Assembly: GCA_026122225.1 (NCBI GenBank)
Contig: JANEZZ010001408.1
Coordinates: forward strand, 62,001 to 126,000
DNA length: 64,000 nt
DNA from: Heloderma charlesbogerti
Lineage: Eukaryota; Chordata; Lepidosauria; Squamata; Helodermatidae
Reading direction: 5' to 3'
Below the pieces are notes generated by a model, which saw only the letters and a program-made list of their open reading frames with translations, was not told where the DNA came from and did no database searches. The position numbers were made by a program, and so were the translations under genes. Position 1 is the first letter of the stretch. Each line of letters begins with the position of its first letter. Positions 10,209 to 59,098 of this stretch are shown here, piece after piece.

Positions 10209-10703
10209 TCAGCAGGACTGTGTATGTATTCCCTGGGCCTTGATGCAGTACCTCTCCTTCAGTTGGGTCTGTGCTCCCAGGCAATTGCACCCACACCCGC
10301 CCACCAGCCGATCCAAAGCCACCACTGTGTCTGCAGGCGGCTCCCCCTCCGTCACATGCGGGGTGAGAAGGGCCTTCACCAACACCAGCTGCGCTATGCG
10401 TTCTCCCTGCTCAAAAGAATAAGAATTTGGGGATAGGTTGTGCAAAACAATCTTCAATTCCCCCTGATAGTCTGGATCAACAACCCCTCCCAATAAGGCA
10501 ATGCCCTTGGTGGCCAGGCTTGACCTGGCTGCTAGACGCCCATATGTGCCAGGGGGTGTGTGGATTCCAATCCCCAACGCCCTAGTGGCAGTTTCCCCTG
10601 CATCCAGCTTGAACACACAGGGAGTGCGTATGTCTAGGCCCGCTGCCCCGGGAGAGCTTTGAACAGGAATGCAAGCTTCAGGCAGCAATTTCCAGACTTT
10701 CAA
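10209..10703 (-). pseudogene. ERV-A dUTPase domain
   Basis: An open frame of about 160 codons holds four of the five trimeric dUTPase motifs: AGLDIRTP, ARSSLATKG, GVVDPDYQGELK and GERIAQLVL. The Gly-rich fifth motif is only weakly present. The enzyme hydrolyses dUTP to dUMP and limits uracil in viral DNA. It lies directly after the integrase fragment, the position seen in ERV-L pol. The frame is still open, although the rest of the element is broken. Confidence 0.85.
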
Positions 10704-11490: not shown

Positions 11491-11851
11491 TGTTAGATAA
11501 AAAGTCCTTGCTTTCGGTTTAGACGAAAAGAATGCCAGGCAGGCAGCAGTGGATCCAACACTATTTTATTGAACGTTTTGCAAAACGGGTGCAGAGCAGT
11601 CTGGACCCCGAGACACGTGTGCAAAAGCCCTTTATATCATATTGCTTCTATTGTTCTTACCAGTAACCAATGAAACAGTTAGTACATCGGCTCACTAAGT
11701 TAATAGCCAATAAACAGTCAGTATCAGCTTACCAAACTGTTAGTCATGAGCACGTCAGTATGATTTTCTTTTTGCTCTGCCTACATTTTTCGCCACTCGG
11801 GCTTTTATGTAACTTGAGACGCCAACAGTTACAGAGTCTCTTTTTCTAACA
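11491..11851 (-). repeat. Provirus 1 3' LTR
   Basis: Begins TGTTAGA and ends TCTAACA, a 7-base inverted repeat. On the - strand it has a TATA-like ATATAAAG (about 11630-11638) and AATAAA (11565-11570). It has the same length as the other LTR. Confidence 0.92.
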
Positions 11852-11868
11852 ATTCCCTCCTTTAAGTC
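11852..11868 (-). promoter_or_regulatory. Polypurine tract of provirus 1
   Basis: On the - strand the purine-rich AAAGGAGGGAA lies directly before the 3' LTR, where plus-strand DNA synthesis is primed in retroviruses. The same tract precedes the 3' LTR of provirus 2. Confidence 0.8.
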
Positions 11869-11889
11869 TTTATTCATGTCTTAAAGCGT

Positions 11890-12756
11890 TTAAAACGGAG
11901 CCTCTTTATTGGTACAATAAAGCAAGAGCATCTGTTTTGACAGAGCGGTTTTTATCAATCGCTGGGATAAGCCTTTAACACAGGGGATAATGCAACAACC
12001 AAATAACACTATAACTCTTATCATCACTACAAGTGAAATAAGGATTGAGGCTGCTAGGTGTTTCTATTTTTTAAACTATCTCTCTAACCAGGCAGTCACG
12101 GGGTTGTTAATCTCTGAATTCTTGGCTAATTCTTCAGACAAGGCAGTGAGGCTCTGCAAAGCCCTTGTTACTGTGCCATCTGGGGCAGTGTTGTTAGGGA
12201 TGAAGGTGCAACACCGTCCACCTAGCATGACACAAACCCCTCCTTTTTCTGCTAACATATCAAGAACACGCCGATTTTCCCAAGCCATTTGGCTGGTGGC
12301 ATTTAGTTGCTCAGCCAATCTCTTTATAGCATCACGGGTATAGTTTATTGAGAGTCTGGCACTTTTTTCTCCCCATGCGTTAGGGTGCTGGAACAAACGG
12401 ATCACAAAGGTGAGGAGGGAAGGAGTGTCCCATCTTAGTGGAAAGGGCAGCACCTTTGCTACAGATCTCCCTGTGGCACAAACAAAACAGTCAGACTTAT
12501 TTAGAGACTTGGCTGTATACTTTATTCACTCTAACCACACATTATCAGTTTCCTCTGTTATTGGGATCCCTAACCTGGTTCTCCAGGGACGCCTCTGTTT
12601 CTCAGGGATCTGTACCAGAAGTGGTCTGAGGGGTGTTGGTGTGACATTTCGGGGTTTTATCTTAAAGCTGTCAAGCCCAAGTCCTTGAGGTATCACCATC
12701 TACGTTAATATTTCTTTAACCAACATTACCAACACCACCCACAATACTTGCTTCAT
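11890..12756 (-). pseudogene. env: Provirus 1 env, most of the surface subunit missing
   Basis: From the - strand start near 12756 there is a hydrophobic leader with an early stop, a short surface segment with a CFVC-type motif near 12480, and then the transmembrane subunit. That subunit has heptad-like helices and a gamma-type CX6CC motif (CVMLGGRCC), a membrane anchor near 11980-12050 and a short tail. The distance is too small for a full surface subunit, so a large deletion is inferred. A stop at 12076 separates the ectodomain from the anchor. Confidence 0.75.
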
Positions 12757-12914
12757 ATTACAAGTTTTTTGTAATTCGAACCCGAGCTTTTCCCAGATGT
12801 TGTGACTTGTATATTACAGGCGATTGTGGCTCCTGGATGGCTTCTTCGCCTGTGTCCTTGGCAGCTTCCAGAGGGGTGCCAGGGAGCAAAGGACCGTTGC
12901 CTGTGTCCTCCTGT

Positions 12915-14243
12915 TTTTTTCTAAGTGACAGAAGGAAGCGAGGGTCGCTTAAATGGCTTTATCCGGCTGCAATGTGTCCATTTATTAGAACCCACAAGCT
13001 TTATACATGAGTGGCTGGTTGGTCCCACCAAATAAGGCCCCTCCCACCCTTCTTTTAAAGCTTCTTTATTTCACTTTTTCAGCAACACCTCGTCTCTCGT
13101 CTGGAAGAGATGGATAGGTGCATCTAACGGCAGTCTCTGAAACGGAACGGAATAAGCTCGTAGCTGTGAAAGAACAGACTGTAGAGAAGTCAACTGATCC
13201 CTTAGCATCTGATCACCCACCTCTCACTTGACTTCCTCCCTCCTTCCGCAGTGTACCCGAGGCGGGAACCTAAACATCAGTTCAAAGGGGGACAATTTTA
13301 TGTCCTTTCTTGGCATCCTTCGAAGCTTCGTTAAAGCTATTGGCAGAGCCTCAACCCAAGTGAGCTTCACCCCTCGTTGGAGTTTGGTTAAAGTCTCCTT
13401 GAGGCTCCGATTGATTCTTTCAACCTGTCCACTTGCCTGGGGCCTCCAGGGGCAATGTAAATGCCACTCTACTCTCAGAGCTTGTGCTAGCCCCCGTGTA
13501 ATAACTGAGGTGAAATGTGAGCCCTGATCGGACTCTATAACTTCGGGCAGGGAGAACCGGGGCACCACCTCCTGTAACAATTTAGCAACAACAGTTTTAG
13601 CTTGGCAGTTCCTACATGGAAACGCCTCTACCCACCCTGTCATTTGACATACTATTACAAGCAAATACCTGTAACCCCTACATGGTGGCATCTCAGCAAA
13701 ATCAATCTGCGCCCTCTGGAAAGGATAGTAGGCCCATGGTCGCCCTCCTTTTGGAGGAGGGGGTGCCCTGGGAGGGTTGGTTTTCTGGCAGACTTTACAG
13801 GTTGCGGCTAGTCGGTGGGCGCATACAGTTAAGCCAGGGGAGACAAACAGCCTCTTGCAATAGTCGATCATGGCTGATGCTCCAGGGTGTCTAAGAGAAT
13901 GGTGAACTTGCTCTAGAACAACCCTCTGCAAGGTCTGTGGAAGAAGCAGTCTTCCATCTGTCATCTGGATCCATCCGTCATCGCAGGGACTTATTCCGTG
14001 TTCTTGTGCCATCCGTAACTCAGCAGGGGAGTATGTGGGGCGCTCTTTTCTTTTGGGTAGAATGAGGAATGTTCCTTGGATTCCCTCTCTGGCTGCTCTT
14101 TTTGCGGCCTCATCTGCCTTCTGGTTTCCCTGTCTCCATTTTTCCTCTTTTTCTTTCCCATGGGCTCGGACGTGGACAACAGCTACTTGTGAGGGTAGCT
14201 GGAGGGCATCCAGAAGATCCACTATTAGGCCGCCATTAGCCAC
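12915..14243 (-). pseudogene. pol: Provirus 1 integrase
   Basis: The open frame 14243-13224 carries the HHCC zinc region (HHSLRHPG...CKVCQK), the first catalytic Asp (QIDFAEMP), the second Asp (ESDQGSHF) and the catalytic Glu (SGQVERIN). The C-terminal GPY/F-type domain (EGPYLVGP) continues in another frame at 13050-12915, so a frameshift near 13224 breaks the protein. This enzyme joins viral DNA to the host genome. Confidence 0.85.
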
Positions 14244-15582
14244 TGGAGATCCGTTTGCTGTAAGGAATCCCCTCTCTTTCTACAGTTGCCCATGAGCATG
14301 CACAACGGCGAAGGCATTTTTGCTATCGGTATAAATGTTTATTCGCTTTCCCTTGCTGGCTTGCAGGGCTCTTGTCAGGGCTACCAGTTCAGCAGATTGG
14401 GCGGAAAAAATGAGGAGGCAGCCTTTCCTCACGCACACTCTCCTCTAGAGTAACGACAGCCACGCCTGTGTAGCGCCTTCCATCTAGCATATAGCTAGAT
14501 CCATCTACAAACAGATCTCTGGCTCCCTCTATTGGTTCATTCTCAAGGTCCGGTCGGCCTTTGGTGTCTAGGTCTAATACTTCAAGGCAGTCATGATCTG
14601 GGAGTCCTGATCCGTTTGTGTCCAGTAATGTTGGCAGTAGTGTGGCGATATTAAAGCTGGAGCAAGCCTTAAAAGTGAGGTTTTCGTTTGTTAGTAAACC
14701 TATTTTATATCGGGAATGCCGGGCTGGGTTGAGAAATTTGCTTCCTCCTCCTGATCTCAAAATCTGTGGCACTCCATGCGGCACCCAAACTCCAATGGGT
14801 CCTCCCATTGTAATTTTTTCCGCTTCAACGCAAACTAGAGCCGTCGCTGCTACTGCCCTTAGGCAACTTGGCCACCCTCGTGCTACGACATCTAGGACCT
14901 TGGAGTAATATCCCACTGGTCTCCAAGAGGGCCCTTTTTGCTGGCAAAGCACTCCCGAAGCTATGCCCTTATTTTCATGCACATAAAGTCTAAATGGCCG
15001 GCTGGGATTTGGTATGGCTAGAGCAGGTGGTGACACAAGAGCAGCTTTAAGACTGAGAAAAGACTTATTTATTTCCTTAGTCCATTTCCATTTATCTAGT
15101 CTATCTTTCTGCAGCGCCTCATACAGCGGCCGCGCTGTCTCCCCATAGTTTGCTATCCATAGTCGGCAGAATCCGGTCAGCCCCAGGTAGGCCCTCAATT
15201 CGCGGGGGGACTTAGGGACAGGAGTGTCACGGATGACTTCAACTCTTTCTTGCCTTAGGCTCCGAGTCCCTCTAGTTATGTGGTAGCCTAGGAATTTTAC
15301 AGTTGGTTGGGCCAACTGTACTTTTTCTTTTGACACTTTATACCCCCCCCCTGCTAGATAGTTGAGGAGGGAAACCGTCCCACTCAGGCACGCGTTCTTG
15401 GCCTTGGCTGAAATCAGGAGGTCGTCACAGTATTGGAGGAGATGCACCTCTGAGTGCTGCTGGACCCAGGGTTCGAGATCCTTTTGGAGCTGCTGGCCAA
15501 AGACCACCGGTGAGAGATTCAGCCCCTGAGGGATGACTGTCCATGCTAATTGAACTTTTGAACCCCCCCTGGGCTTTCCCAT
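14244..15582 (-). pseudogene. pol: Provirus 1 reverse transcriptase (3' part) and RNase H
   Basis: The open frame 15582-14389 holds the PQGLNLSP and YCDD active-site regions of reverse transcriptase, the connection region, and the start of RNase H (FVDGSS). The rest of RNase H (YTDSKNA) lies in another frame between 14380 and 14250. Frame breaks near 15560 and 14390 separate it from its neighbours. Confidence 0.85.
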
Positions 15583-16427
15583 TCAAAGGCGAACAAAGGC
15601 CTTGAATCAGGGTGGAGGGGGATGCTGAAAAAGGCGTCTTTTAGGTCTATGACAGTGAACCAGGCGTGCTCTTCCGGAATTCCTACAAGGAGGGTGTGTG
15701 GGTTGGGGACCACAGGATGGGGGGCCTCGATCTGCTGATTAATGAGCTGGAGGTCTTGCACTAAGCGGTAGCCCTTGCCCCCCCCTCCTCTTTTTGGCAC
15801 AGCGATGATGGGCGTGTTATAGGGGGACATTATCTCAATGAGCCGGCCTTCTTCTAGGAGCTTTGTTATTACTGGTTGTAGGCCCTCCTTTCCTTGGCGG
15901 GAAAGGGGATACTGTTTCACATGAACAGGCCTTGCTCCCTCCTTGAGGGGAATTTTGTATGGTGCTGCCGACTTGGCACGAGAGGCCCCTCCAATCCCGG
16001 CCCAAGCTAGAGGGTTGACTCTGTTTTCTATTAAGCTCCAGTCCTCCGTGGCCTCTGGGGTGGATTCTTCTGCAACCTTCAAAAGGGCCATTTGGTAGTT
16101 ACTACTCTGTTGTTTAGGGAGCCGTAACTCCATCCTTCCCTCAGGAGTAAAAGCAATCTCAATTTGGAGTTTAGTCAATAAGTCCCTCCCTAGCAATGCC
16201 ACCGGACAGGAGGGGGTACAGACAAATGCATGTTCTAGGTGTGTTTTCCCAACCTTGGTGAACAGGGGACGAGAGAGGGGCACTTGGGTTGCCCTTCCCT
16301 CGACCCCCATTATGGTGGTGAACCCCCCACCTCCCGTTGGGGGCTCACTGAGGGGGAGGACGGACAGGGCGGCCCCTGTGTCCACAAGGGCTTTGTAGGA
16401 GCGGCCCCCAACCTTTATTTTGACCAT
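15546..16427 (-). pseudogene. pro-pol: Provirus 1 protease and N-terminal reverse transcriptase
   Basis: The frame starts with an aspartic protease carrying ALVDTGAALSVLPL and a later GRDLL motif. It runs on into the fingers and palm of reverse transcriptase (RLVQDLQLIN and VIDLKDAFFSIPL). It breaks near 15560 before the YCDD box. About 815 bases of the corresponding region are absent from provirus 2, where host sequence lies instead. Confidence 0.85.
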
Positions 16428-16485
16428 GGGGTCCCGTCTTGCCTCAGAGACGGCTAAGAGGGGGCTGGGCCCCGGTCTGTCTTAA

Positions 16486-17746
16486 TCTCTTTCCTGTTCA
16501 TACAGAACTCTCTGCGCTCCTCTCACAGTCACGCTTCCAGTGCCCCATTTTCTTACAAAAGGCACATTGATCTTTCCCCAGGGGAGATCCTTTCCTTCCC
16601 CCTTTCCTCCCCTTCCTAGCTCCCTCCTTGTCAGGTTTAAGAACCGCAGCAAGGAGCTTGGCCTGCCTCTTGTCTTTTTCTTTTCCTTCTTCTTCTTCTC
16701 GCCTCTCATAAACCTTTTGAGCTACTTCAACTAAAACTCCTAGGTCAGCTGCCAAGCCTCCTTCAACTTTTTGCAACTTCTTTTTGATGTCTTGGCAGCT
16801 ATTTCCCACGAACTGAGTCGTGAGGATCCTTAAATTTTTTGGATCATTCAAGTCAATGTCAGTATATTTGGTGAAGGCTTCCCTTAGCCTTCGGAGGAAC
16901 ACGGCAGGAGGCTCATTTTTGTCTTGTTTTAAAGTCAAAACTTTTTGCAAATTGGGGGCCCTCTGCGCAGCTTGTCTCATGCCTGCTAAAATGAGCCGAA
17001 AATACAGCATGCCTCTGCCTTTGTGCAGCGGTGGCTAGTCTCCGATCCGGCTGTCTTAAAGGCAACACTGCTGCTATCTGATCTTCGGTCACAAGGGGGA
17101 GCTCCTCCCTAAGCTTGGCGCGCGCCGGCAAGAATAGTCGGTTTCTGACTAAGGAAACAAGTGTTTAATAACATCTGTGTGTCGTCCCAGGTAGGATTGT
17201 GTGTGAGCCTCACATTTTCTATTAAGGACAACAATGGACTGGGGTCCTCCTCAAAGGAGGGGTTAAATTGTTTCCAATTATACAAGTCAGATGTCGTGAA
17301 TGGGACATAAACAAACAACGTCTCTTGAGGATATTGGGCGGTAGAGTCGGGGACCTCTCTAATAGGGAAGGTCAATTTTTCTTAATTATCACAGGGAGGG
17401 CCAAGGATATACATTTAATTACCCATGGGGTGGGCCTGCCGCCGAGGGGTACACAAGTTGCCCACGAATCAATATAAGGGAACTGGTCCCAACTTCCCCT
17501 CTGTGCTACTGTTGTTCGCACATCAGATACCAAGGTTGGGTCAAAAGACCCCTCGGGTGGCCATTTGGGTTCTAATACTGGCCATTCCCGAGTGCAAAAA
17601 AAGACAAGACGATCCTTTGTCATCTTAGTTCTATAATCCTGCTTAAAATGTGACCAATTGCGCAAACAACACTCCAAGGGCGTATGGGACTTCTTCGCAG
17701 ACTTAGATTGGGACCCGCCCATGACGGTGGGAATTTCAGTCAGCAA
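16486..17746 (-). pseudogene. gag: Provirus 1 gag
   Basis: The matrix start carries a myristoylation-type MGGSQSKS (about 17723). Capsid pieces at 17375-17109 and 17131-16913 lie in different frames. The nucleocapsid end has one zinc knuckle (CAFCKKMGHWKRDC) near 16540. Frame changes near 17373, 17110 and 16950 show that no full polyprotein is made. Confidence 0.8.
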
Positions 17747-18122
17747 TTCTTGCGCTTCGCCCTCCTCTGACCTAGCCCGTCTCCGGGGTAAGGAAATGCA
17801 GATCGGGGCTCCCCACTCGCTTCGCCCGTAGGCGTCTCACACAATCACAAACACACCACCATCCCGCGTTTATCCCCTAATGTAAGCTGTTTCACTTACC
17901 CCAAAAGCCTCTTCTGTCCCGCCCGCAGCTGCGTCCAGCTGCTTATTGATCCACTGCCGGTGCCTAAAAGGAGTGATCACGTCTCCCTCTTCCTCTGGCG
18001 TTGGTCCCCGAGCGCCTCTGCCGCCGCCATCGTGAGGAGAAGGCAGTGTAAACAACCGCCTGTGGCCACTTCTCCTCCGTGGCCCCTCGGCTCAGCGCGA
18101 AGGGGACGCGCCCCGAAGCAGG

Positions 18123-18140
18123 ATCCGAGTCACGGCACCA
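18123..18140 (-). promoter_or_regulatory. Primer binding site (tRNA-His) of provirus 1
   Basis: On the - strand TGGTGCCGTGACTCGGAT lies three bases after the 5' LTR. It is complementary to the 3' end of tRNA-His, the primer class that names HERV-H-type elements. Confidence 0.85.
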
Positions 18141-18143
18141 AAT

Positions 18144-18504
18144 TGTTAGATAAAAAGTCCTTGCTTTCGGTTTAGAAGAAAAGAATGCCAGGCAGGCAGC
18201 AGTGGATCCAACACTATTTTATTGAACGTTTTGCAAAACGGGTGCAGAGCAGTCTGGACCCCGAGACACGTGTGCAAAAGCCCTTTATATCATATTGCTT
18301 CTATTGTTCTTACCAGTAACCAATGAAACAGTTAGTACATCGGCTCACTAAGTTAATAGCCAATAAACAGTCAGTATCAGCTTACCAAACTGTTAGTCAT
18401 GAGCACGTCAGTATGATTTTCTTTTTGCTCTGCCTACATTTTTCGCCACTCGGGCTTTTATGTAACTTGAGACGCCAACAGTTACAGAGTCTCTTTTTCT
18501 AACA
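18144..18504 (-). repeat. Provirus 1 5' LTR
   Basis: 361 bases with TGTTAGA...TCTAACA ends. It differs from the 3' LTR at one position by eye (an A/C change near its left end, about base 34). Confidence 0.92.
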
Positions 18505-32641: not shown

Positions 32642-33000
32642 GGTGGAAATGGATGTTTATTGCATACCAGATGGTAACAGGCACTAGACTCACTTTGGAA
32701 CCTGAAGGACCAAGTTTAAATATATATGGGAGGCTACTGGTTGTGATCCACCCAATTGAGTCTCTGCCAGATTACATAATTTCTTCAGAAATTCAATCTA
32801 AAACCATTTGCCTGTGAAGTGGATTCCAAGTGGAGGAAGGAAACAAGGACAACTATAGCTCTTTGTTGTTGTTCCTTGAGAATGGAGTGGCCCAAATAAT
32901 TTAGACATATGAGTTCCTGTTCCGCACAAACATAAGATAATGAGAAATAATATTTTGCATACTGGCTAAATAATATGTATTCACGTGAATTGATCCATAG

Positions 33001-34510
33001 AGAGTGAAGTCAAGTGGGCCTTAGGAAGCATTAGTAACAACAAAGCTAGCGGAGATGACAGTCTTCCAGCTGAGCTATTTAAAATCCTAAAAGATTATGC
33101 TGTTAAAGTGCTGCACTCAATATGCCAACAAATTTGGAACACTCAACAATGGCTGCAAGACTGGAAAAGGTCAGTTTACATTCCAATTCCAAAGAAGGGC
33201 AATGCCAAAGAGTGCTCAAACTACTGCACAATAGCGCTCATTTCACATGCCAGCAAGGTTATGCTCAAAATCCTACAAGCTAGGCTTCAGCAGCATGTGA
33301 ACCGAGAACTACTGGAAGTAGAAGCTGGGTTTCAAAGAGGCAGAGGAACTAGAGATCAAATCGCCAACATTCGCTGGATCATGGAGAAAGCAAGAGAATT
33401 CCAGAAAAACATCTATTTCTGCTTCATTGACTATGCTAAAGGCTTTGATTGTGTGGATCACAACAAACTGTGGCAAATTCTTAAAGTGATGGGAGTACCA
33501 GACCACCTTACCTGTCTCCTGAGAAACCTGTATGAGGGTCAAGAAGCAACAGTAAGAACCAGACATGGAACAACCGAGTGGTTCAAAACTGGGAAAGGAG
33601 TACAACAATGCTGCATATTGTCACCCTGCTTATTTAACTTATATGCAGAGTACATCATGAGAAACGCCGGGTTGGATGAATCACAGGTCGGAATTAAGAT
33701 TGCTGGGAGGATTATCAACAAACTCCGATATGCAGACAATACCACCCTAATGGCAGAAAGTGAAGAGGATCTCAAGAGCCTCTTGTTGAGGGTGAAAGAG
33801 GAGAGTGCAAAAGCTGGTTTGAAACTCAACATTAAAAAAACGAAGAGCATGGCATCTGGCCCCATCACTTCCTGGCATATAGAAGGGGAAGAAATGGAAG
33901 CAGTGACAGATTTTACTTTCTTGGGCTCCAAGATCACCGCAGACGGTGACTGTAGCCATGAAATTAAAAGATGCTTGCTCCTGGGGAGGAAAGCTATGGC
34001 AAACCTAGACGGCATAGTAAGAAGCAGAGACATCACCTTGCCGACAAAGGTCCGTCTAGTCAAAGCTATGGTTTTCCCAGTAGTAATGTATGGCTGTGAG
34101 AGCTGGACTATAAGGAAGGCTGAGTGCCGAAGAATTGATGCTTTCGAACTGTGGTGCTGGAGAAGACTCTTACGAGTCCCCTGGACTGCAAGGAGGTCCA
34201 GTCAGTCAATCCTAAAGGAAATCAACCCTGAGTGCTCATTGGAAGGACAGATCCTGAAGCTGAAGCTGAAATATTTTGGCCACCTAATGCGAAGAGAAAA
34301 CTCCCTGGAAAAGACCCTGATGCTGGGAAAGACCGAAGGCAAAAGGAGAAGGGGATGGCAGAGGATGAGATGGCTAGATAGCATCACCAATGCAATGAAT
34401 ATGAACTTGAGCACACTCCGGGAGAGAGTGCAGGACAGGAAGGCGTGGCGTGCTATGGTCCATGGGGTCACTAAGAGTTGGACACGACTGAACGACTGAA
34501 CAACAACAAC
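33001..34510 (+). mobile_element. BovB (RTE clade) LINE, 3' part
   Basis: The + strand frame 33108-34499 (463 codons) is BovB reverse transcriptase from the fingers to the C-terminal tail (MRWLDSITNAMNMNLST and WRAMVHGVTKSWTRLND). The active site reads YADN instead of YADD, so the enzyme would be dead. It starts inside the ORF (5' truncated) and ends with ACAACAAC. It meets the - strand BovB piece tail to tail. Confidence 0.9.
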
Positions 34511-35104
34511 TGCTTTCCCCACCCTTTTATTGACTAAGAGTGCTACTCCATTTCTTCTAAGGGATTCTTGCCCACAGTAGTAGATATAATGGTCACCTGA
34601 ATTAAATTCGCTCATGCTGGTCCATTTTAGTTCGCTGATTCCCAAGATGTCGATGTTCAATCTTGCCATCTCATGTTTGACCACCTCCAGCTTACCTTGA
34701 TTCATTGATCTGACATTCCAGGTTCCTAAACAATATTGTTCTTTACAGCATTGGATTTTCTTTTCACCACCAGACACATCCACAGCTGAGTGTCCTTTCG
34801 GCTTTGGCCCAGCCACTTCACTCTTTCTGGCGCTTCTTGGAAATTCCCTCTGCTCTTCCTCAGTAGTATATTGGACACCTTCCGACCTGAGGGGCTCATC
34901 TTCCGGCATCATATCTTTTAGCCTTGTGATACGTTCCATGGGGTTTTCTTGGCAAGAATCCTGGAGTGGGTTGCCATTTCCTTCTCCAGTGGACCACATT
35001 TTGTCAGAACTCTCCACCATGACCTGTCCGTCTTGGATGGCCCTGCACGGCATAGCTTATGGCTTCACTGAGTTACGCAAGCCCCTTCGCCAGAACAAGG
35101 CAGT
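34511..35104 (-). mobile_element. BovB 5' part, - strand (left of provirus 2)
   Basis: On the - strand it has the BovB 5' region (ERITRLKDM, QYCLGTWNVRSMNQGK) and the start of the AP-type endonuclease (ARLNIDILGISELKW), stopping at NKRVGKAV. The last 15 or so bases of its 5' end lie beyond provirus 2 at 40375-40390. Confidence 0.85.
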
Positions 35105-35516
35105 TGTTAGATAAAAAGTTCTTGCTTCTGGTTGAAAGAAAGGATGCCAGACAGGCAGCAGTGGATCCAACACTATTTTATTGAACGTTTTGCAAAACGG
35201 GTGCAGAGCAGCCAGCAGTCTGGACCCCGAGCTAAGCAAGCATAAGTCTTTTTATACCCCCTCCCCTTTACAATTTTCTGTTAGCCACAAGACATGTCAA
35301 CTGACTGAGCCGTTAGCTGACTCATTAGAGCACGACTGTGTCAACATGTTTATTTCTGATTATGCTTATGTGACTGTCTCACCAGACTTCCCCTTTTTAA
35401 CAGATGTACACTGCCACTGGACATGTGTCCGGTGGGCTCAATAATTATGACTAATAGCTCAAAGGTCTAGCAAAGAGCTGACAGCCAAAGAAAAAGAGGA
35501 CAGTCTTTTTCTAACA
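35105..35516 (-). repeat. Provirus 2 3' LTR
   Basis: TGTTAGA...TCTAACA ends as in provirus 1, but longer and different inside. A TATA-like GTATAAAAAG lies near 35250 on the - strand, and AATAAA lies in the U3/R part near 35178. Confidence 0.92.
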
Positions 35517-35555
35517 ATTCCCTCCTTTAAGTCTTTACTCATGTCTTAAAGCGTT

Positions 35556-36950
35556 TTAAAACAGGGTTTCTGTATCAGCACAATAAAGCAAGAGCATTTG
35601 TTTTGACAGAGCAGTTTCAATTAACTGCTGGGATTTATAAACAAGAGGTGATTGTGGCTTTTGGATGGTTTCTTCGCCTGTGTCCCTGGCAGCTTCTGGT
35701 GGGGTGCCAGGGAGCAGAGGACCGTTGCCCGTGTCCTCCTGTTCTTTCCAGGTGACAGAAGGAAGCAAGGGTCGCCTAAATGGCTTTATCCGGCTGCAAT
35801 GTGTCCATTTGCTAGAACCCACAAGCTTTATACATGAGTGGCTGGTTGGTCCCACCAAATAAGGCCCCTCCCACCCTTCCTTTAAAGCTTCTTTATTCTA
35901 CTTTTTCAGCAGCACCTCGTCTTTTGTCTGGAAGAGATGGATAGGTGCATCTAACGGCGATCTCTGGAACGGAATGGAATAAACTCATAGCTGTGAAAGG
36001 ACAGACTGTAGAGAAGTCAACTGATCTCTTAGCATCTGATCACCCATCTCCCACTTGACGTCCTCCCTCCTTCTGCAGTGTACCCGAGGCGGGAACCTAA
36101 ACATTAGCTCAAAGGGGGACAGCTTTATGTCTTTTCTTGGCATTTTTCGAAGCTTTGTCAAAGCTATTGGCAGAGCCTCTACCCAAGTGAGTCTTACCCC
36201 TTGCTGGAGCTTGGTTAGAGTCTCCTTGAGACTCCGATTGGTTCTTTCAACCTGCCTACTCGCCTGGGGTCTCTAAGGGCAGTGTGAGTGCCACTCTACC
36301 CCCAGAGCTTGTGCCAAACCTTGCGTAACAGCTGAGGTGAAATGTGAGCCCTGGTCGGACTCTACAACCTCAGGCAGGGAGAACCGGGGCACCACCTCCT
36401 GTAACAACTTAGCAACTACCGTTTTTGCTTGACAGTTTCTGCATGGGAATGCTTTTACTCACCCTGTCATTTGACACACTATTACAAGCAAGTATCTGCA
36501 ACCCCTACACGGTGGCATTTCAGCAAAATCAATCTGCACCCTCTGGAAGGGATAATACGCCCATGGTTGCCCTCCCTTTGGTGGAGGGGGTGCCCTGGGG
36601 GAATTAATTTTCTGGCAAACTTCACATGTTGCTGCTAATCGATGGGCACATACAGTTAGGCCAGGAGAGACGAACAGCCTCTTGCAATAGTCAATCATAG
36701 CTGATGCCCCAGGATGTCCAAGAGAGTGATGCACTTGTTCTAAGACAGCTCCCTGCAGGGTCTGCGGTAGGAGCAGTCTCCCATCTGTCATCTGGAACCA
36801 TCCGTCGCCACGGGGACTTACTCTGTGTTCTTGCGCCATCTGTAACTCGGAAGGGGAGTATGTGGGGGCTCCTCTCTTCTGGGTAAGACAAGAAATGTCT
36901 CTTGGATTCTTCCTTTGGCTGCCCTCTTTGCGGCCTCATTTGCCCTTAAG
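35556..36950 (-). pseudogene. pol: Provirus 2 integrase, fused to the env tail
   Basis: The open frame 36839-36459 carries the HHCC region (CEVCQK) and QIDFAEMP. The catalytic core continues in other frames to about 36060. The C-terminal domain (VGPTSHSCIKLV) lies in the frame 35858-35556, which passes without a stop into the env cytoplasmic-tail sequence because env has been deleted between them. Frame breaks make it non-functional. Confidence 0.8.
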
Positions 36951-37233
36951 CAACTCGGCCAGCCTCTTGCCACGACATCAAGGACCTTGGAGTAATATCC
37001 CACCGGCCTCCAGGAGGGGCCCTTTCGCTGGCAAAGTACTCTCGAGGCTACGCCTTTATTTTTATGCACATAGAGTCTAAATGGTCGACTGGGATTTGGT
37101 ATGGCTAGGGCAGGTGGCGACACAAGGGCAGCTTTGAGACTGAGGAAAGACTTATTTATCTTTTTAGTCCATTTCCATTTATCTAATTTATCTTTTTGCA
37201 GTGCCCCATACAGCGGTCGCGCCGTCTCCCCAT
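36951..37233 (-). pseudogene. pol: Provirus 2 pol connection fragment
   Basis: Resumes at GETARPLYGAL right after the SNX17 segment and matches provirus 1 at about 15140-14860. It then jumps at about 36951 to sequence just before integrase, so RNase H is deleted. Confidence 0.8.
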
Positions 37234-38000
37234 CTATGTAGACAAGAGGATGGGCAGCTGGCTGGGGTTGAGGCACATGGAGATCTACCCAGGAGGAGAT
37301 TTTATATCCCACAGAGTTGCGTCAGGGCAGGGCCCCTAGAGGTCTTTATCACCAATGCCCTCAAAGGTGTAGTTGGCCCCAATGTCAGCAGAAGAGCTGG
37401 AACGGCTAATGGCATGCAGACGGAGCCCAATTTGCTTGAGACTTTTGCAATAGACTCCCTGCTTGCATCAGGAGAATCCAAAAGAGGGGGAGCCTTTACT
37501 GCTTGCTGGCTGCCTGGCTGCTGCAGGGCTCCATTGACTCGCCTGCGGAACATCTTGCGGATGCTGCCTCTTGATTTTTTTCATCATCAGTTTATCCACC
37601 ATAGACTGCAGGCAGATGCTCAGCATTATGGCCTGCAGGCTGGTGATTGTGACCCACTGTAGGCAGTCTTTATTTATCAGGTACTTAAAGGCAAGTTCTA
37701 GCTTCACCTCTGACTTGCCAGCGGTAGGGCCTGATATCTCGTTGTGCACGGGGACCGAGGAAGTGACCCGCCAGCAGCACATTCGGGTCACCTTGAAACT
37801 TCCCTCCTTGATCTGGTCATTGGGCAGCTTGACCTGGAAGTTCAGCTTACTATTCTCAGCCCCCACAATGACGTGGCAGCCCTTCTCGGGGAAGTCTGTG
37901 ATGCAGGGGTCAAATTTGAGATAGCTGTAATACTTGAGGGTCTGTGCCAAGCGGATGAACTCCTTCTTGGAGACCTTATCTTGTAGGGACTTCAGCTGAT
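37234..38000 (-). pseudogene. SNX17: Captured host SNX17 cDNA segment (C-terminal part plus 3' UTR)
   Basis: Intronless host sequence in viral sense orientation. The - strand translation follows the C-terminal part of sorting nexin 17, from HQLKSLQDKVSKKEF through FRVTR-like and CWRVTSSVP blocks, WVTITSLQAIMLSICLQSM and QQAVKAPPLLDSPDASRES, to FEGIGDKDL and the native stop (37336-37338). About 100 bases of 3' UTR follow. From known SNX17 this covers the later FERM modules and the tail, without the PX domain. SNX17 sorts NPxY cargo such as LDL-receptor family proteins and integrins on endosomes with the Retriever complex. One extra A in an A7 run (37575-37581) and a second frame change near 37425 break the frame. 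It does not join the viral frame: protease runs into a stop at 37976-37978. Confidence 0.92.
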
Positions 38001-38525
38001 GGTGTTGCCAACTTGGCACGAGAGGCCCTTCCGACCCCGGCCCAAACTAGGGGATTGACTCTGTTTTCTATTAAGCACCAGTCCTCGTCTGCCTCTGGGG
38101 CGGGCTCCTCTGCAACCTTTGAAAGGGCCATTTGATAGTTACTGCTCTGTTGCTTGGGGAGCTGTACTTCTATCCTTCCGTCAGAAGTGAAAGCAATCTC
38201 AATTTGGAGCTTAGTCAATAAGTCCCTTCTTAACAATGCCACCGGACAGGAGGGGGTACAGACAAATGCATGTGCTAGGTGTGTTTTCCCAACCTTGGTG
38301 AGCAAGGGACGAGAAAGGGGCACTCGGGTTGCCCTTCCCTCGACCCCCATTATGGTGGTAGATCCCCCACTTCCCGTTGGTGGTTGGCTAAGGGGGGAGG
38401 ATGGACAGGGCGGCCCCTGTATCTACAAGGGCATTGTAGGAACAGCCCCCAACTTTAATTTTGACTATGGGGTCCCGTCTTGCCTCAGAGACGGCTCAGA
38501 GGGGGCTGGGCCCCGGTCTGTCTTA
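38001..38525 (-). pseudogene. pro: Provirus 2 protease
   Basis: Aligns with the protease of provirus 1 (GRATRVPLSRPL, CPVALLRRDLLTKLQ). The Asp-Thr-Gly region near 38430 is out of frame with the main open frame 38350-37976. It ends by running into the SNX17 segment. Confidence 0.75.
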
Positions 38526-38538
38526 GTCTCTTTCTTGT

Positions 38539-39564
38539 TCATGCAAAATCCTTTCTGCCCTCCCCCTCCACACCCTCCTCTCTCTCTTTTTGCTTCAAGG
38601 CTTCACAGTCACGCTTCCAGTGCCTAATTTTCTTACAGAAGGCACACTGGTCTCTTCTCAGGGAGGACCCCTTCCTCCCTCCTTTTCCTCTCTTCTTAGC
38701 TCCTCCTTTGTTGGGTCTGAGAACCGCAGCGAGGAGCTTCGCTTGCCTCTTGTCTTTCATAAACTTTCTGAGCTCTACTAAAACACTTAGGTCAGCCACC
38801 AATCTTCTCTCAACTTTCTGCAACTTCTTTCTGATGTCTTGGCAACTATTTCCCACAAACTGAGTCGTGAGAATCCTTAAATTATTTGGGTCCTTCAAGT
38901 CAATATCAGTATACTTGGCGAAGGCTTCCCTTAGCCTTTGGAGGAACACGGCAGGAGGTTCATTTTTGTCTTGTTTTAAAGTCAGGACTTTTTGCAAATT
39001 GGGGGCCCCCCGCGCGGCTTGCTTCATGCCCGTTAAAACGAACCAAAAATACTCAGCATGTAGCTGTCTCTGTGCCGCCATGGCTACCCCCCAATCGGGC
39101 CGTCCTGTGGGCAGAGCTGCTGCCGTCTCATCCTCAGTTGCCTGGGGGTGTTCCTCTCTAAACCTGGCCCATGCCCCCACAAGGATGGTTGGTTTCTTAT
39201 TGACCATCACAGGAGGGGCCAGAGACATGCATATGACAACCCACAGAGCGGGCTTGCCGCCAAGGGGTATGCAGGTCGCCCATGAATCGATATAGGGGAA
39301 CTGGTCTCAACTTCCCCTCTGTGTTACTATTATACGCACAGCAGATACCAGGGTTGGGTCAAAAGACCCCTCGGGTGGCCATTTGGGTTCTACTACCAGC
39401 CATTCCCGGGCACAAAGAAGGACAAGGCGATCCTTTGTCATCTTAGTTCTATAATCTTGCTTAAAATGTGACCAGTTGCGCAAACAACACTCCAAGGGCA
39501 TATGGGACTCTCCTGTAGGCCTGGATTGGGACCCGCCCATGACGGTGGGGATTTCAATCAACAA
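38539..39564 (-). pseudogene. gag: Provirus 2 gag
   Basis: Matrix start with MGGSQSRPTG near 39540 in the frame 39564-39307. A longer frame 39228-38539 carries capsid and one zinc knuckle (CAFCKKIRHWKRDC). It is shorter than in provirus 1 owing to a deletion between these frames. Confidence 0.8.
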
Positions 39565-39941
39565 TTCTCGCGCTTCGCCCTCCTCTGACCCAGCCCGTCT
39601 CCGGGGTAGGGAAATGCAGATCGGGGCTCCTCACTCTCTTCACCCGTAGGCGTCTCACACAATCACAAACACACCACCGTCCCGCGTTTATCCCCTAATG
39701 TAAACTGTTTCACTTACCCCAAAAGCCTCTTCTGTCCCGCCCGCAGCTGCATCCAGCTGCTTTATTGATCCACTGCCGGTGCCTAAAAGGAGTGATCACG
39801 TCTCCCTCTTCCTCTGGCGTTGGTCCCCAAGTGCTTTCGCCGCCGCCGTCATGAGGAGAAGGCAGTGTAAACAACCGCCTGTGGCCACTTCTCCTCCGCG
39901 GCCCCTCGGTTCAGTGCAAAGGGGACGCACCCCGAAGCAGG

Positions 39942-39959
39942 ATCTGAGTCACGGCACCA
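39942..39959 (-). promoter_or_regulatory. Primer binding site (tRNA-His, one mismatch) of provirus 2
   Basis: On the - strand TGGTGCCGTGACTCAGAT, three bases after the 5' LTR. It differs from the provirus 1 site at one base. Confidence 0.8.
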
Positions 39960-39962
39960 AAT

Positions 39963-40374
39963 TGTTAGATAAAAAGTTCTTGCTTCTGGTTGAAAGAAAG
40001 GATGCCAGACAGGCAGCAGTGGATCCAACACTATTTTATTGAACGTTTTGCAAAACGGGTGCAGAGCAGTCAGCAGTCTGGACCCCGAGCTAAGCAAGCA
40101 TAAGTCTTTTTATACCCCCTCCCCTTTACAATTTTCTGTTAGCCACAAGACATGTCAACTGACTGAGCTGTTAGCTGACTCATTAGAGCACGACTGTGTC
40201 AACATGTTTATTTCTGATTATGCTTATGTGACTATCTCACCAGACTTCCCCTTTTTAACAGATGTACACTGCCACTGGACATGTGTCCGGTGGGCTCAAT
40301 AATTATGACTAATAGCTCAAAGGTCTAGCAAAGAGCTGACAGCCAAAGAATAAGAGGACAGTCTTTTTCTAACA
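39963..40374 (-). repeat. Provirus 2 5' LTR
   Basis: 412 bases, same ends as the 3' LTR, with four substitutions by eye. Confidence 0.92.
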
Positions 40375-40390
40375 CAGTGATCCATGAAGG

Positions 40391-57454: not shown

Positions 57455-59098
57455 TCAGTCGTTCAGTCGTGTCTGACTCTTCGTGACCCCATGGACCATA
57501 GCACGCCAGGCCTTCCTGTCCTGCGCTCTCTCCCGGAGTGTGCTCAAGTTCATATTCATTGCATCGGTGATGCTATCTAGCCATCTCATCCTCTGCTGTC
57601 CCCTTCTCCTTTTGCCTTCAGTCTTTCCCAGCATCAGGGTCTTTTCCAGAGAGTTTTCTCTTCGCATTAGGTGGCCAAAATATTTCAGCTTCAGTATCTG
57701 TCCTTCCAATGAGCAGTCAGGGATGATTTCCTTTAGGATGGACTGATTTGACCTCCTTGCAGTCCAGGGGACTCGTAAGAGTCTTCTCCAGCACCACAGT
57801 TCGAAAGCATCAATTCTTCGGCGCTCAGTCTTCCTTATAGTCCAGCTCTCACAGCCATACATTACTACTGGGAAAACCATAGCTTTGACTAGACGGACCT
57901 TTGTCGGCAAGGTGATGTCTCTGCTTCTTACTATGCTGTCTAGGTTTGCCATAGCTTTCCTCCCCAGGAGCAAGCATCTTTTAATTTCATGGCTACAGTC
58001 ACCGTCTGCGGTGATCTTGGAGCCCAAGAAAGTAAAATCTGTCACTGCTTCCATTTCTTCCCCTTCTATATGCCAGGAAGTGATGGGGCCAGATGCCATG
58101 ATCTTCGTTTTTTTAATGTTGAGTTTCAAACCAGCTTTTGCACTCTCCTCTTTCACCCTCAACAAGAGGCTCTTGAGATCCTCTTCACTTTCTGCCATTA
58201 GGGTGGTATCATCTGCATATCGGAGGTTGTTGATAATTCTCCCGGCAATCTTAATTCCAACCTCTGATTCATCCAACCCAGCATTTCTCATGATGTACTC
58301 TGCATATAAGTTAAATAAGCAGGGTGACAATATGCAGCCTTGTCGTACTCCTTTCCCAATTTTGAACCACTCAGTTGTTCCATGTCTGGTTCTTACTGTT
58401 GCTTCTTGACCCTCATACAGGTTTCTCAAGAGACAGGTAAGGTGGTCTGGTACTCCCATCACTTTAAGAATTTGCCACAGTTTGTTGTGATCCACACAAT
58501 CAAAGGCTTTAGCGTAGTCAATGAAGCAGAAATAGATGTTTTTCTGGAATTCTCTTGCTTTCTCCATGATCCAGCGAATGTTGGCGATTTGATCTCTAGT
58601 TCCTCTGCCTCTTCGAAACCCAGCTTGTACTTCCAGTAGTTCTCGGTTCGCATACTGCTGAAGCCTAGCTTGTAGGATTTTGACCATCACCTTGCTGGCA
58701 TGTGAAATGAGCACAATTGTGCGGTAGTTTGAACACTCTTTGGCGTTGCCCTTCTTTGGAATTGGAATGTAAACTGACCTTTTCCAGTCTTGCGGCCATT
58801 GTTGAGTGTTCCAAATTTGTTGGCATATTGAATGCAGCACTTTAACAGCATCATCTTTTAGGATTTTAAATAGCTCAGCTGGAATACTGTCATCTCTGCT
58901 AGCTTTGTTGTTACTAATGCTTCCTAAGGCCCACTTGACTTCACTTTCTAGGAAGTCCGGCTCAAGTTCAGTGACTGCACTATCATGGCTATCAGGGACA
59001 TTAAGATCTTTCCTGTATAGTTCTTCTGTGTATTCTTTCCACCTCTTCTTAATCTCATCTGCTTCTGTTAGGTCCCTGCCTTCATTGTCCTTTATCAT
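57455..59098 (-). pseudogene. BovB reverse transcriptase frame
   Basis: 547 codons open on the - strand. It carries FIDYAKAFDCVDHNKLW, GVRQGCILSPCLFNLY and the active site YADDTTLMAE, and the C-terminal MRWLDSITDAMNMNLST. The domain looks intact, but the upstream endonuclease frame is broken and the linker has an extra duplicated block, so the whole polyprotein is not made. Confidence 0.88.

What the first reader, a model, noticed from the sequence alone, without database searches (positions are those of the whole stretch)
37234..38000. An endogenous retrovirus that captured host SNX17 coding sequence
Inside provirus 2, between protease and a pol connection piece, lies about 767 bases of intronless SNX17 (later FERM modules, tail, native stop, 3' UTR) in viral sense orientation. 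SNX17 is a multi-exon host gene, so the source was a spliced RNA. Both LTRs and a CAGT target duplication flank the whole unit, so the chimera itself was reverse transcribed and integrated. Gene capture is well known in transforming exogenous retroviruses but is rarely seen in an endogenous provirus, and I know of no SNX17 case.
Basis: partly seen in the sequence, partly recalled or inferred. Interest (0 to 1): 0.96.

Follow-up and report, generated by a model that had tools for sequence, protein, structure and literature searches.

The report
Endogenous retrovirus family carrying host SNX17
In a genome that is likely a lizard's or snake's, an inherited retrovirus carries an intron-free piece of the host gene SNX17 where its copying enzyme should be, most likely picked up when that enzyme jumped between two RNA templates, and the defective hybrid sits at about 40 places in the genome, probably spread with enzymes from relatives that kept theirs.

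Summary
Confirmed and extended. Window 37234-38000 (-) is intron-free SNX17 (C-terminal codons, native stop, ~100 nt of 3'UTR) inside provirus 35105-40374 (two LTRs, CAGT duplication). It stands in place of the RT polymerase domain that a sister provirus in the window (11491-18504) keeps. The same genome holds the donor gene; six GT-AG introns over the captured part are absent here. Both virus/SNX17 junctions fall on 8-nt identities between donor mRNA and sister virus (GCAGCACC, ATGGGGAG), as expected of template switching. It is not a one-off: 40 loci match, each junction is seen in 37 of 40, and 28 of 33 copies with both LTRs have a 4-bp duplication; LTR divergence is mostly 0-3%. None of the 39 other loci has RT; at least 40 loci, the sister included, carry the RT segment. 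SNX17 drifted and its frame broke while the family spread, so it looks like a passenger. Shared changes are strongly G>A on the viral strand, private ones are not. Host-mRNA capture by endogenous retroviruses is already published (crocodilian KIT-ligand and nectin3; ERV-Hako), so this is a new, unusually well resolved member of a known kind.

The parts
35105..40374 (-). SNX17-carrying defective gamma-like provirus ('provirus 2')
   Evidence: LTR pair, TSD, gag/pro/RNase H-connection/integrase pieces
39963..40374 (-). 5' LTR (viral sense)
   Evidence: 4 mismatches to the other LTR
35105..35516 (-). 3' LTR (viral sense)
35101..35104 (.). target-site duplication CAGT, left
40375..40378 (.). target-site duplication CAGT, right
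39307..39564 (-). gag matrix (MA) piece
   Evidence: Pfam Gag_MA, below its cut-off here; the sister piece 17372-17746 is above it
38539..39228 (-). gag capsid piece (Gag_p30)
   Evidence: Pfam Gag_p30 E 2.7e-22
38001..38350 (-). protease region; its frame (ORF 37976-38350) runs a few codons into SNX17 out of frame and stops
   Evidence: no Pfam hit itself; aligns to provirus 1, whose ORF 15546-16427 has Pfam RVP; frames
37234..38000 (-). captured SNX17 cDNA: C-terminal codons to the stop plus part of the 3'UTR
38001..38008 (-). junction 1, microhomology GCAGCACC shared by donor exon and sister virus (reads GCAACACC here)
37226..37233 (-). junction 2, microhomology ATGGGGAG shared by donor 3'UTR and sister virus
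36945..37233 (-). RT connection / RNase H-like piece resuming after SNX17
   Evidence: Pfam RT_RNaseH_2; blastn to 14854-15146
35517..36944 (-). integrase and 3' region; sister positions 14119-14853 (RNase H part) and about 11969-12817 (env part) have no counterpart
   Evidence: Pfam Integrase_H2C2 in 36459-36839; blastn blocks
11491..18504 (-). sister provirus without SNX17, retaining RT, RNase H, integrase and an env TM piece; TSD CGTG
15147..15958 (-). RT polymerase segment of the sister provirus that SNX17 replaces

Best explanation
A gamma-like endogenous retrovirus of a likely squamate reptile carries spliced host SNX17 sequence in place of its RT polymerase domain, most likely acquired when reverse transcriptase switched from viral RNA to a co-packaged SNX17 mRNA and back at two 8-nt matches. 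Copying viral RNA from its 3' side, the enzyme probably left the virus at ATGGGGAG, entered the SNX17 3'UTR, copied through stop, tail and FERM codons, and returned to viral RNA at GCAGCACC at the protease/RT border (inferred from the junctions). The RT-less hybrid could then move only with proteins supplied in trans, probably by RT-bearing relatives (inferred). It spread to about 40 loci, most copies also lacking RNase H and env pieces, and carried SNX17 as an out-of-frame, decaying passenger (inferred from drift and broken frames).
For: SNX17 identity. Donor gene in the same genome at G000:C1604 minus strand; seven exons and six GT-AG introns over the captured part, all six absent here. Three residues by which the donor differs from nine other lepidosaurs are shared by the window copy. 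8-nt microhomology at both junctions; 170 of 1,000,000 random breakpoint pairs reach 8 nt. RT segment 15147-15958 replaced; RT segment found in 0 of 39 other loci. Junction 1 and junction 2 each in 37 of 40 copies. A 4-bp duplication in 27 of 32 fetched loci with both LTRs, plus the window; 27 near-full LTR pairs, median divergence 0.99%, range 0-2.69%. RT segment at 40 loci, the sister provirus among them, at 96-100% (40 scored of 631 candidates). Shared non-CpG changes G>A 29: C>T 6, changes in 1-2 copies 27: 24. Young-clade pN/pS 0.85.
Against: No transcript or particle data. The order of the two switches, and co-packaging versus a read-through transcript for one junction, cannot be told from DNA. 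The RNase H/env losses do not fit a simple tree: L039 shares the extra A with young copies yet keeps RNase H, while L040 and L041 keep the native A-run yet lack it, so copies recombined or lost it more than once. dN/dS is 0.28-0.48 against the donor (seven copies printed) and 0.51-0.91 against L040 (seven copies printed); the first includes the constrained donor branch, but some early constraint is not excluded. L021 and L030 read SNX17 to the native stop, so translation somewhere is not excluded. Whether any RT-bearing relative can work was not examined.
Confidence: 0.93

Rival explanations
1. A LINE-made SNX17 processed pseudogene landed inside an already integrated provirus; no viral capture occurred.
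For: BovB-like and CR1-like LINE ORFs lie in the window (family names recalled). A sheep SNX17-like protein (P0064) looks like a decayed retrocopy, so such copies may arise elsewhere.
Against: The piece ends inside the 3'UTR, the first AATAAA/ATTAAA of the donor lies about 280 nt beyond its stop, and no poly(A) follows. The insert stands in place of 812 nt of virus; the longest word shared by the flanks of the insert (40 and 44 nt compared) is 4 nt. The two junctions recur in 37 of 40 copies each, and 28 of 33 copies with both LTRs have their own duplication around the whole unit.
Confidence: 0.02
2. Capture went through a chimeric read-through transcript: a provirus sat in or beside SNX17, a virus-SNX17 RNA was made, and one template switch restored the rest of the virus (classical oncogene model).
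For: A model of this kind is given for host-gene incorporation by retroviruses (background passage of PMC4299795). Only one junction need then be a template switch.
Against: Both junctions, not one, show 8-nt homology, and neither is at a splice site: junction 1 is inside an exon, 41 nt from its end, and junction 2 is in the 3'UTR. No provirus was looked for near the donor gene; only 2,461 bases were fetched.
Confidence: 0.08
3. The SNX17 cargo is functional for the element: a truncated FERM/tail protein, or SNX17-derived RNA acting on the host gene, helped the family spread.
For: The captured part holds the whole FERM C-terminal domain and the native C-terminus. dN/dS against the donor is 0.28-0.48. 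L021 and L030 read to the native stop.
Against: The protease frame runs into SNX17 out of frame. Of 37 copies read from the junction, 34 stop before the native end or run into virus. Young-clade pN/pS is 0.85. Three loci that lost the SNX17 3' part each have their own duplication (L042-L044).
Confidence: 0.06

Closest known systems
CrocERV31 (nectin3) and CrocERV29 (KIT-ligand), crocodilian endogenous retroviruses, PMC4299795 (abstract, passages and one discussion section seen)
   Same: Host mRNA captured in endogenous proviruses of reptiles; several insertions; the nectin3 case is at the expense of a viral gene.
   Different: There nectin3 replaces env, and KIT-ligand sits between pol and env without significant loss, with open frames under purifying selection. 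Here SNX17 replaces the RT polymerase domain, is out of frame and decays.
ERV-Hako with SUSD6 or SPHKAP 3'UTR (primates), PMC11905727 (passages and ERV-Hako section seen)
   Same: Host gene sequence inside endogenous proviruses, the SUSD6 insert at more than one locus.
   Different: Group II virus and 3'UTR sequence; here a gamma-like virus with coding sequence plus 3'UTR, and both donor junctions resolved.
LTR-mediated retroposition (Tan et al. 2016, not held; known here through passages of PMC5408686)
   Same: mRNA enters an LTR-element cDNA by template switching at microsimilarities and is integrated between LTRs.
   Different: The passages seen describe retrocopies, not a chimera that became a family at about 40 loci.
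Transforming retroviruses with a captured oncogene (recalled, and passages of PMC13297096)
   Same: Host sequence carried by a retrovirus; defective forms need a helper (recalled).
   Different: No growth-promoting gene, no in-frame fusion, and spread in the germline.

Membership tests
Host-gene-transducing (captured-mRNA) endogenous retrovirus | Spliced host exons in viral sense inside a two-LTR provirus | tested here: met
Host-gene-transducing (captured-mRNA) endogenous retrovirus | Donor gene present with introns in the host | tested here: met
   G000:C1604; six GT-AG introns
Host-gene-transducing (captured-mRNA) endogenous retrovirus | Chimera itself integrated (own target duplications) | tested here: met
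   CAGT here; 27 of 32 other loci with both LTRs
Host-gene-transducing (captured-mRNA) endogenous retrovirus | Loss of viral coding sequence at the capture site | tested here: met
   812 nt of RT replaced relative to the sister provirus
LTR-mediated retroposition by template switching | Microhomology at both junctions | tested here: met
   8 nt each; 170 of 1,000,000 random pairs reach 8 nt
LTR-mediated retroposition by template switching | Switching shown biochemically | not testable with these tools
   DNA only
Class I (gamma-like) endogenous retrovirus | RT and gag closest to gammaretroviruses; 4-bp duplication | tested here: met
   Sister RT best PDB hit 4hkq, RT/RNase H p80 (E 5.9e-89; that it is XMRV is recalled); Gag_p30 and TLV_coat; 4-bp duplications. 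Against: the integrase best hit is PFV, a foamy virus; no retroviral tree was built
LINE processed pseudogene | Poly(A) tail and target duplication around the retrocopy | tested here: not met
   Longest word shared by the flanks (40 and 44 nt) is 4 nt; 3' end lies before the donor's poly(A) signals
Autonomous retrovirus | RT present | tested here: not met
   RT segment absent from the window copy and 0 of 39 other loci

The most novel reading that the evidence does not exclude
SNX17 is more than ballast: the cargo gave an RT-less retroelement an advantage, as a truncated FERM/tail protein or as RNA that diverts or silences host SNX17, and its known parent sequence makes the family a strand-resolved record of deaminase editing of retroviruses in the reptile germline.
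Probability: 0.08. Interest if true: 0.88.

Novelty: new member of a known kind. Interest (0 to 1): 0.68.

Why it matters
I found few published cases of host-mRNA capture by germline retroviruses, and here much of the event can be read: donor gene, both likely switch points, a sister virus without the cargo, copies that keep more of the native sequence, and a young burst of defective copies. Because the cargo's parent sequence is known, it polarises mutations and separates those shared by descent (strongly G>A on the viral strand) from those private to one or two copies (balanced). That makes editing or copying errors of reptile retroviruses measurable. It also shows that an element without its own polymerase can reach dozens of loci with a decaying host gene aboard.

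Tried and rejected
Chimera formed at this insertion: rejected, because the SNX17 piece differs from the donor at 43 of 778 sites while the LTRs differ at 4, and 39 other loci carry it. Assembly error: very unlikely, same junctions at many loci. LINE retrocopy inserted later: rejected. G>A hypermutation of this copy alone against the sister provirus: not supported; the viral flanks are symmetric (G>A 116, A>G 111, C>T 78, T>C 89), though G/A differences are enriched before G (81/310 against 38/271 for the mirror context).

A count had to be corrected. Against squamate-invariant codons I first found 21 of 164 codons replaced; the donor gene, found later, itself carries three of them (E10D, R163Q, S172A), leaving 18. 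Counts include those three; R163Q (at a CpG) and S172A are in the tables, but neither is in the 14: 1 or 8: 9. One search uses the donor. Dropped before counting: one search left out 3 of 40 copies (L045-L047); one search left out 8 of 40 (L028, L041-L047); the young clade is 30 of 40. By summed tblastn score zebra finch and crocodile SNX17, in two pieces each, rank above the squamates; squamates have the best unbroken alignments.

Not resolved: when RNase H and env pieces were lost, since L039, L040 and L041 conflict (see evidence against). The SNX17 tree is unrooted in substance; L041 was an arbitrary root, and many of its nodes are weak.

Searches that found nothing: IMG/VR for SNX17, integrase and junction 1; reptile DNA is hardly expected there. 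Papers on SNX17 with retroviruses: 2 papers, both unrelated; 15 listed of 2,509 holding two of three terms. Subscription journals are mostly not held.

Full report
Observation. The minus-strand ORF at 37468-38019 matches SNX17 structures 4tkn and 4gxb (E about 5e-63) and Pfam SNX17_FERM_C and SNX17-31_F2_FERM. Squamate SNX17s align without a break from 38007 to their last residue at 37339 (Thamnophis 67% over 237 columns, frameshifts included); by summed score zebra finch and crocodile, in two pieces each, rank higher. The FERM part is 82-87% identical to nine squamates, while eight of those are 94-97% identical to the ninth, Thamnophis. The piece stands in viral sense between the protease region and an RT-connection/RNase H-like piece, in a provirus whose LTRs (35105-35516, 39963-40374) differ at 4 sites and are flanked by CAGT. 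The protease frame ends a few codons into SNX17, out of frame.

What it replaced. A second provirus in the window (11491-18504, TSD CGTG, LTRs with 1 difference in 361) is a sister: 80-90% identical in the longer blocks, with protease, RT, RNase H, integrase and an env TM piece, RT closest in the PDB to 4hkq but integrase closest to PFV. Aligned to it, SNX17 stands in place of 15147-15958, the RT polymerase domain; 14119-14853 (RNase H) and about 11969-12817 (env) have no counterpart either.

Donor. In the same assembly (2.30 Gb, 3246 contigs) the N-terminal half of a gecko SNX17 protein has six matches, all on contig C1604 minus strand (14 candidates, all scored). The 3' half of that gene (L048, C1604:4500-6960) covers the captured stretch in seven exons separated by six GT-AG introns of 126, 195, 292, 141, 91 and 98 nt; all six are absent from the window copy. 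Independently, retained-intron and exon-skip isoforms of other vertebrates mark five of these positions. At three sites the donor protein differs from nine other lepidosaurs (LQDK, LQQPG, VKAPP), and the window copy has the donor's residues, so the capture most likely happened in this host lineage. The SNX17 piece of copy L040 groups with squamates (bootstrap 100 for that split), its place inside them being unresolved; this is the basis for calling the host a squamate.

Junctions. Donor exon and sister virus share GCAGCACC at junction 1; donor 3'UTR and sister virus share ATGGGGAG at junction 2. Of 1,000,000 random breakpoint pairs between sister virus 12818-17388 and the spliced donor, 170 show 8 nt or more. 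Over 40 copies, junction 1 is present in 37 (not L045-L047) and junction 2 in 37 (not L042-L044), with point changes only, so one capture most likely founded the family.

A family. The 767-nt piece has matches at 40 loci, the window included (41 rows, two from one locus; 40 of 88 candidates scored, so a lower bound): 34 near full length, three of positions 2-496, three of 488-765. A further, reversed partial piece lies beside the L018 provirus. I fetched the 39 loci other than the window. The RT segment is in 0 of 39; RNase H and env pieces are in 4 of 39 (L039, L045-L047). Both LTRs were matched in 32 of 39; 27 of these show a perfect 4-bp duplication beside TG..CA; of the other 5, 4 have a partial LTR. 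The 27 near-full LTR pairs diverge by 0-2.69%, median 0.99%; of the five shorter ones four lie at 0.9-3.0% and L024, whose 3' LTR is largely deleted, at 7.6%. The RT segment of the sister has 40 scored matches, itself included, of 631 candidates, 96-100% identical. Such relatives are the likely source of enzymes in trans; their coding state was not examined.

History of the cargo. Eight copies (L024, L034, L039-L041, L045-L047) keep 15 nt of native SNX17 that the others covering this stretch lost; L040 and L041 lack the frame-breaking extra A; an A-run grows by up to 11 nt in other copies. The order of the RNase H and env losses is unsettled: L039 has the extra A and RNase H, L040 and L041 have neither, so recombination or repeated loss must have occurred. 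L040 reads native-like SNX17 to its native stop but for one internal stop codon; L021 and L030 also reach the native end. The window copy differs from the donor at 43 of 778 sites, L040 at 30 of 797. From its LTRs only about 1.9 nonsynonymous changes are expected in the window copy since its insertion, against 18 at squamate-invariant codons after removing three parental ones. Within the young clade pN/pS is 0.85 (30 copies, 141 codons); against L040 dN/dS is 0.51-0.91 in the seven copies printed; against the donor 0.28-0.48 in seven copies, a mixture that includes the constrained gene. The best reading is a passenger that drifts; weak early constraint is not excluded.

Strand bias. Against the donor, changes shared by 3 or more of 32 copies are non-CpG G>A 29: C>T 6 (binomial p 6e-5 on 200 G and 202 C sites), those in 1-2 copies 27: 24 (Fisher p 0.0055). 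Protein-level polarisation gave 14: 1 against 8: 9 (37 copies). These tests were devised after seeing the data, changes on the donor branch are included in the first, and shared changes are not independent of the tree. The bias belongs to changes passed on through replication, which fits minus-strand cDNA deamination or polymerase error; APOBEC1 can leave G-to-A changes and is expressed in lizards (passages of PMC5399452), but no context signature was shown here.

Known or new. Capture of host mRNA by endogenous retroviruses is described in crocodilians (KIT-ligand, nectin3: PMC4299795, abstract, passages and one section seen) and primates (ERV-Hako: PMC11905727, passages and one section seen); template switching at microsimilarity is described for LTR elements (PMC5408686, passages seen, citing Tan et al. 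2016, not held). I found no SNX17 case in two searches. What is unusual: cargo in place of the polymerase, about 40 loci without RT, both likely switch points and the donor resolved, and a cargo that records mutations with strand resolution.

Noticed in passing
10209-10703 (-): dUTPase-like ORF of 164 aa (Pfam dUTPase E 2e-25; NCBIfam dut below its cut-off) about 0.8 kb outside provirus 1, possibly from another retroelement.
   Followed up: partly
L042-L044: Three copies share an SNX17 piece cut after position 496 and followed shortly by the connection region; each has its own 4-bp duplication, so this derivative also moved.
   Followed up: partly
L045-L047: Three copies keep RNase H and env pieces but have gag/pro joined directly to the last part of SNX17 (position 488), a separate deletion derivative.
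   Followed up: partly
L039 against L040 and L041: RNase H presence conflicts with the extra-A marker among copies, pointing to recombination or repeated loss.
   Followed up: no
L018: An SNX17-carrying provirus flanked on both sides by pieces of an older, reversed SNX17-carrying provirus, apparently inserted into it.
   Followed up: no
37575-37581 and the copies L013-L038: A homopolymer A-run in the SNX17 piece differs in length among copies (0 to +11 nt, some with interruptions), probably slippage.
   Followed up: partly
35646-39960 against 12818-18140: Sister proviruses differ by 394 transitions and 59 transversions, with G/A differences enriched before G.
   Followed up: partly
39940-39962 (-): Sequence after the 5' LTR, TGGTGCCGTGACTCAGAT, resembles a tRNA-His primer-binding site (identification recalled, not tested).
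   Followed up: no
57455-59098 (-): A BovB-like LINE ORF of 547 aa (family name recalled); its stretch is 96% identical to the copy at 32998-34519, suggesting recent LINE activity.
   Followed up: no
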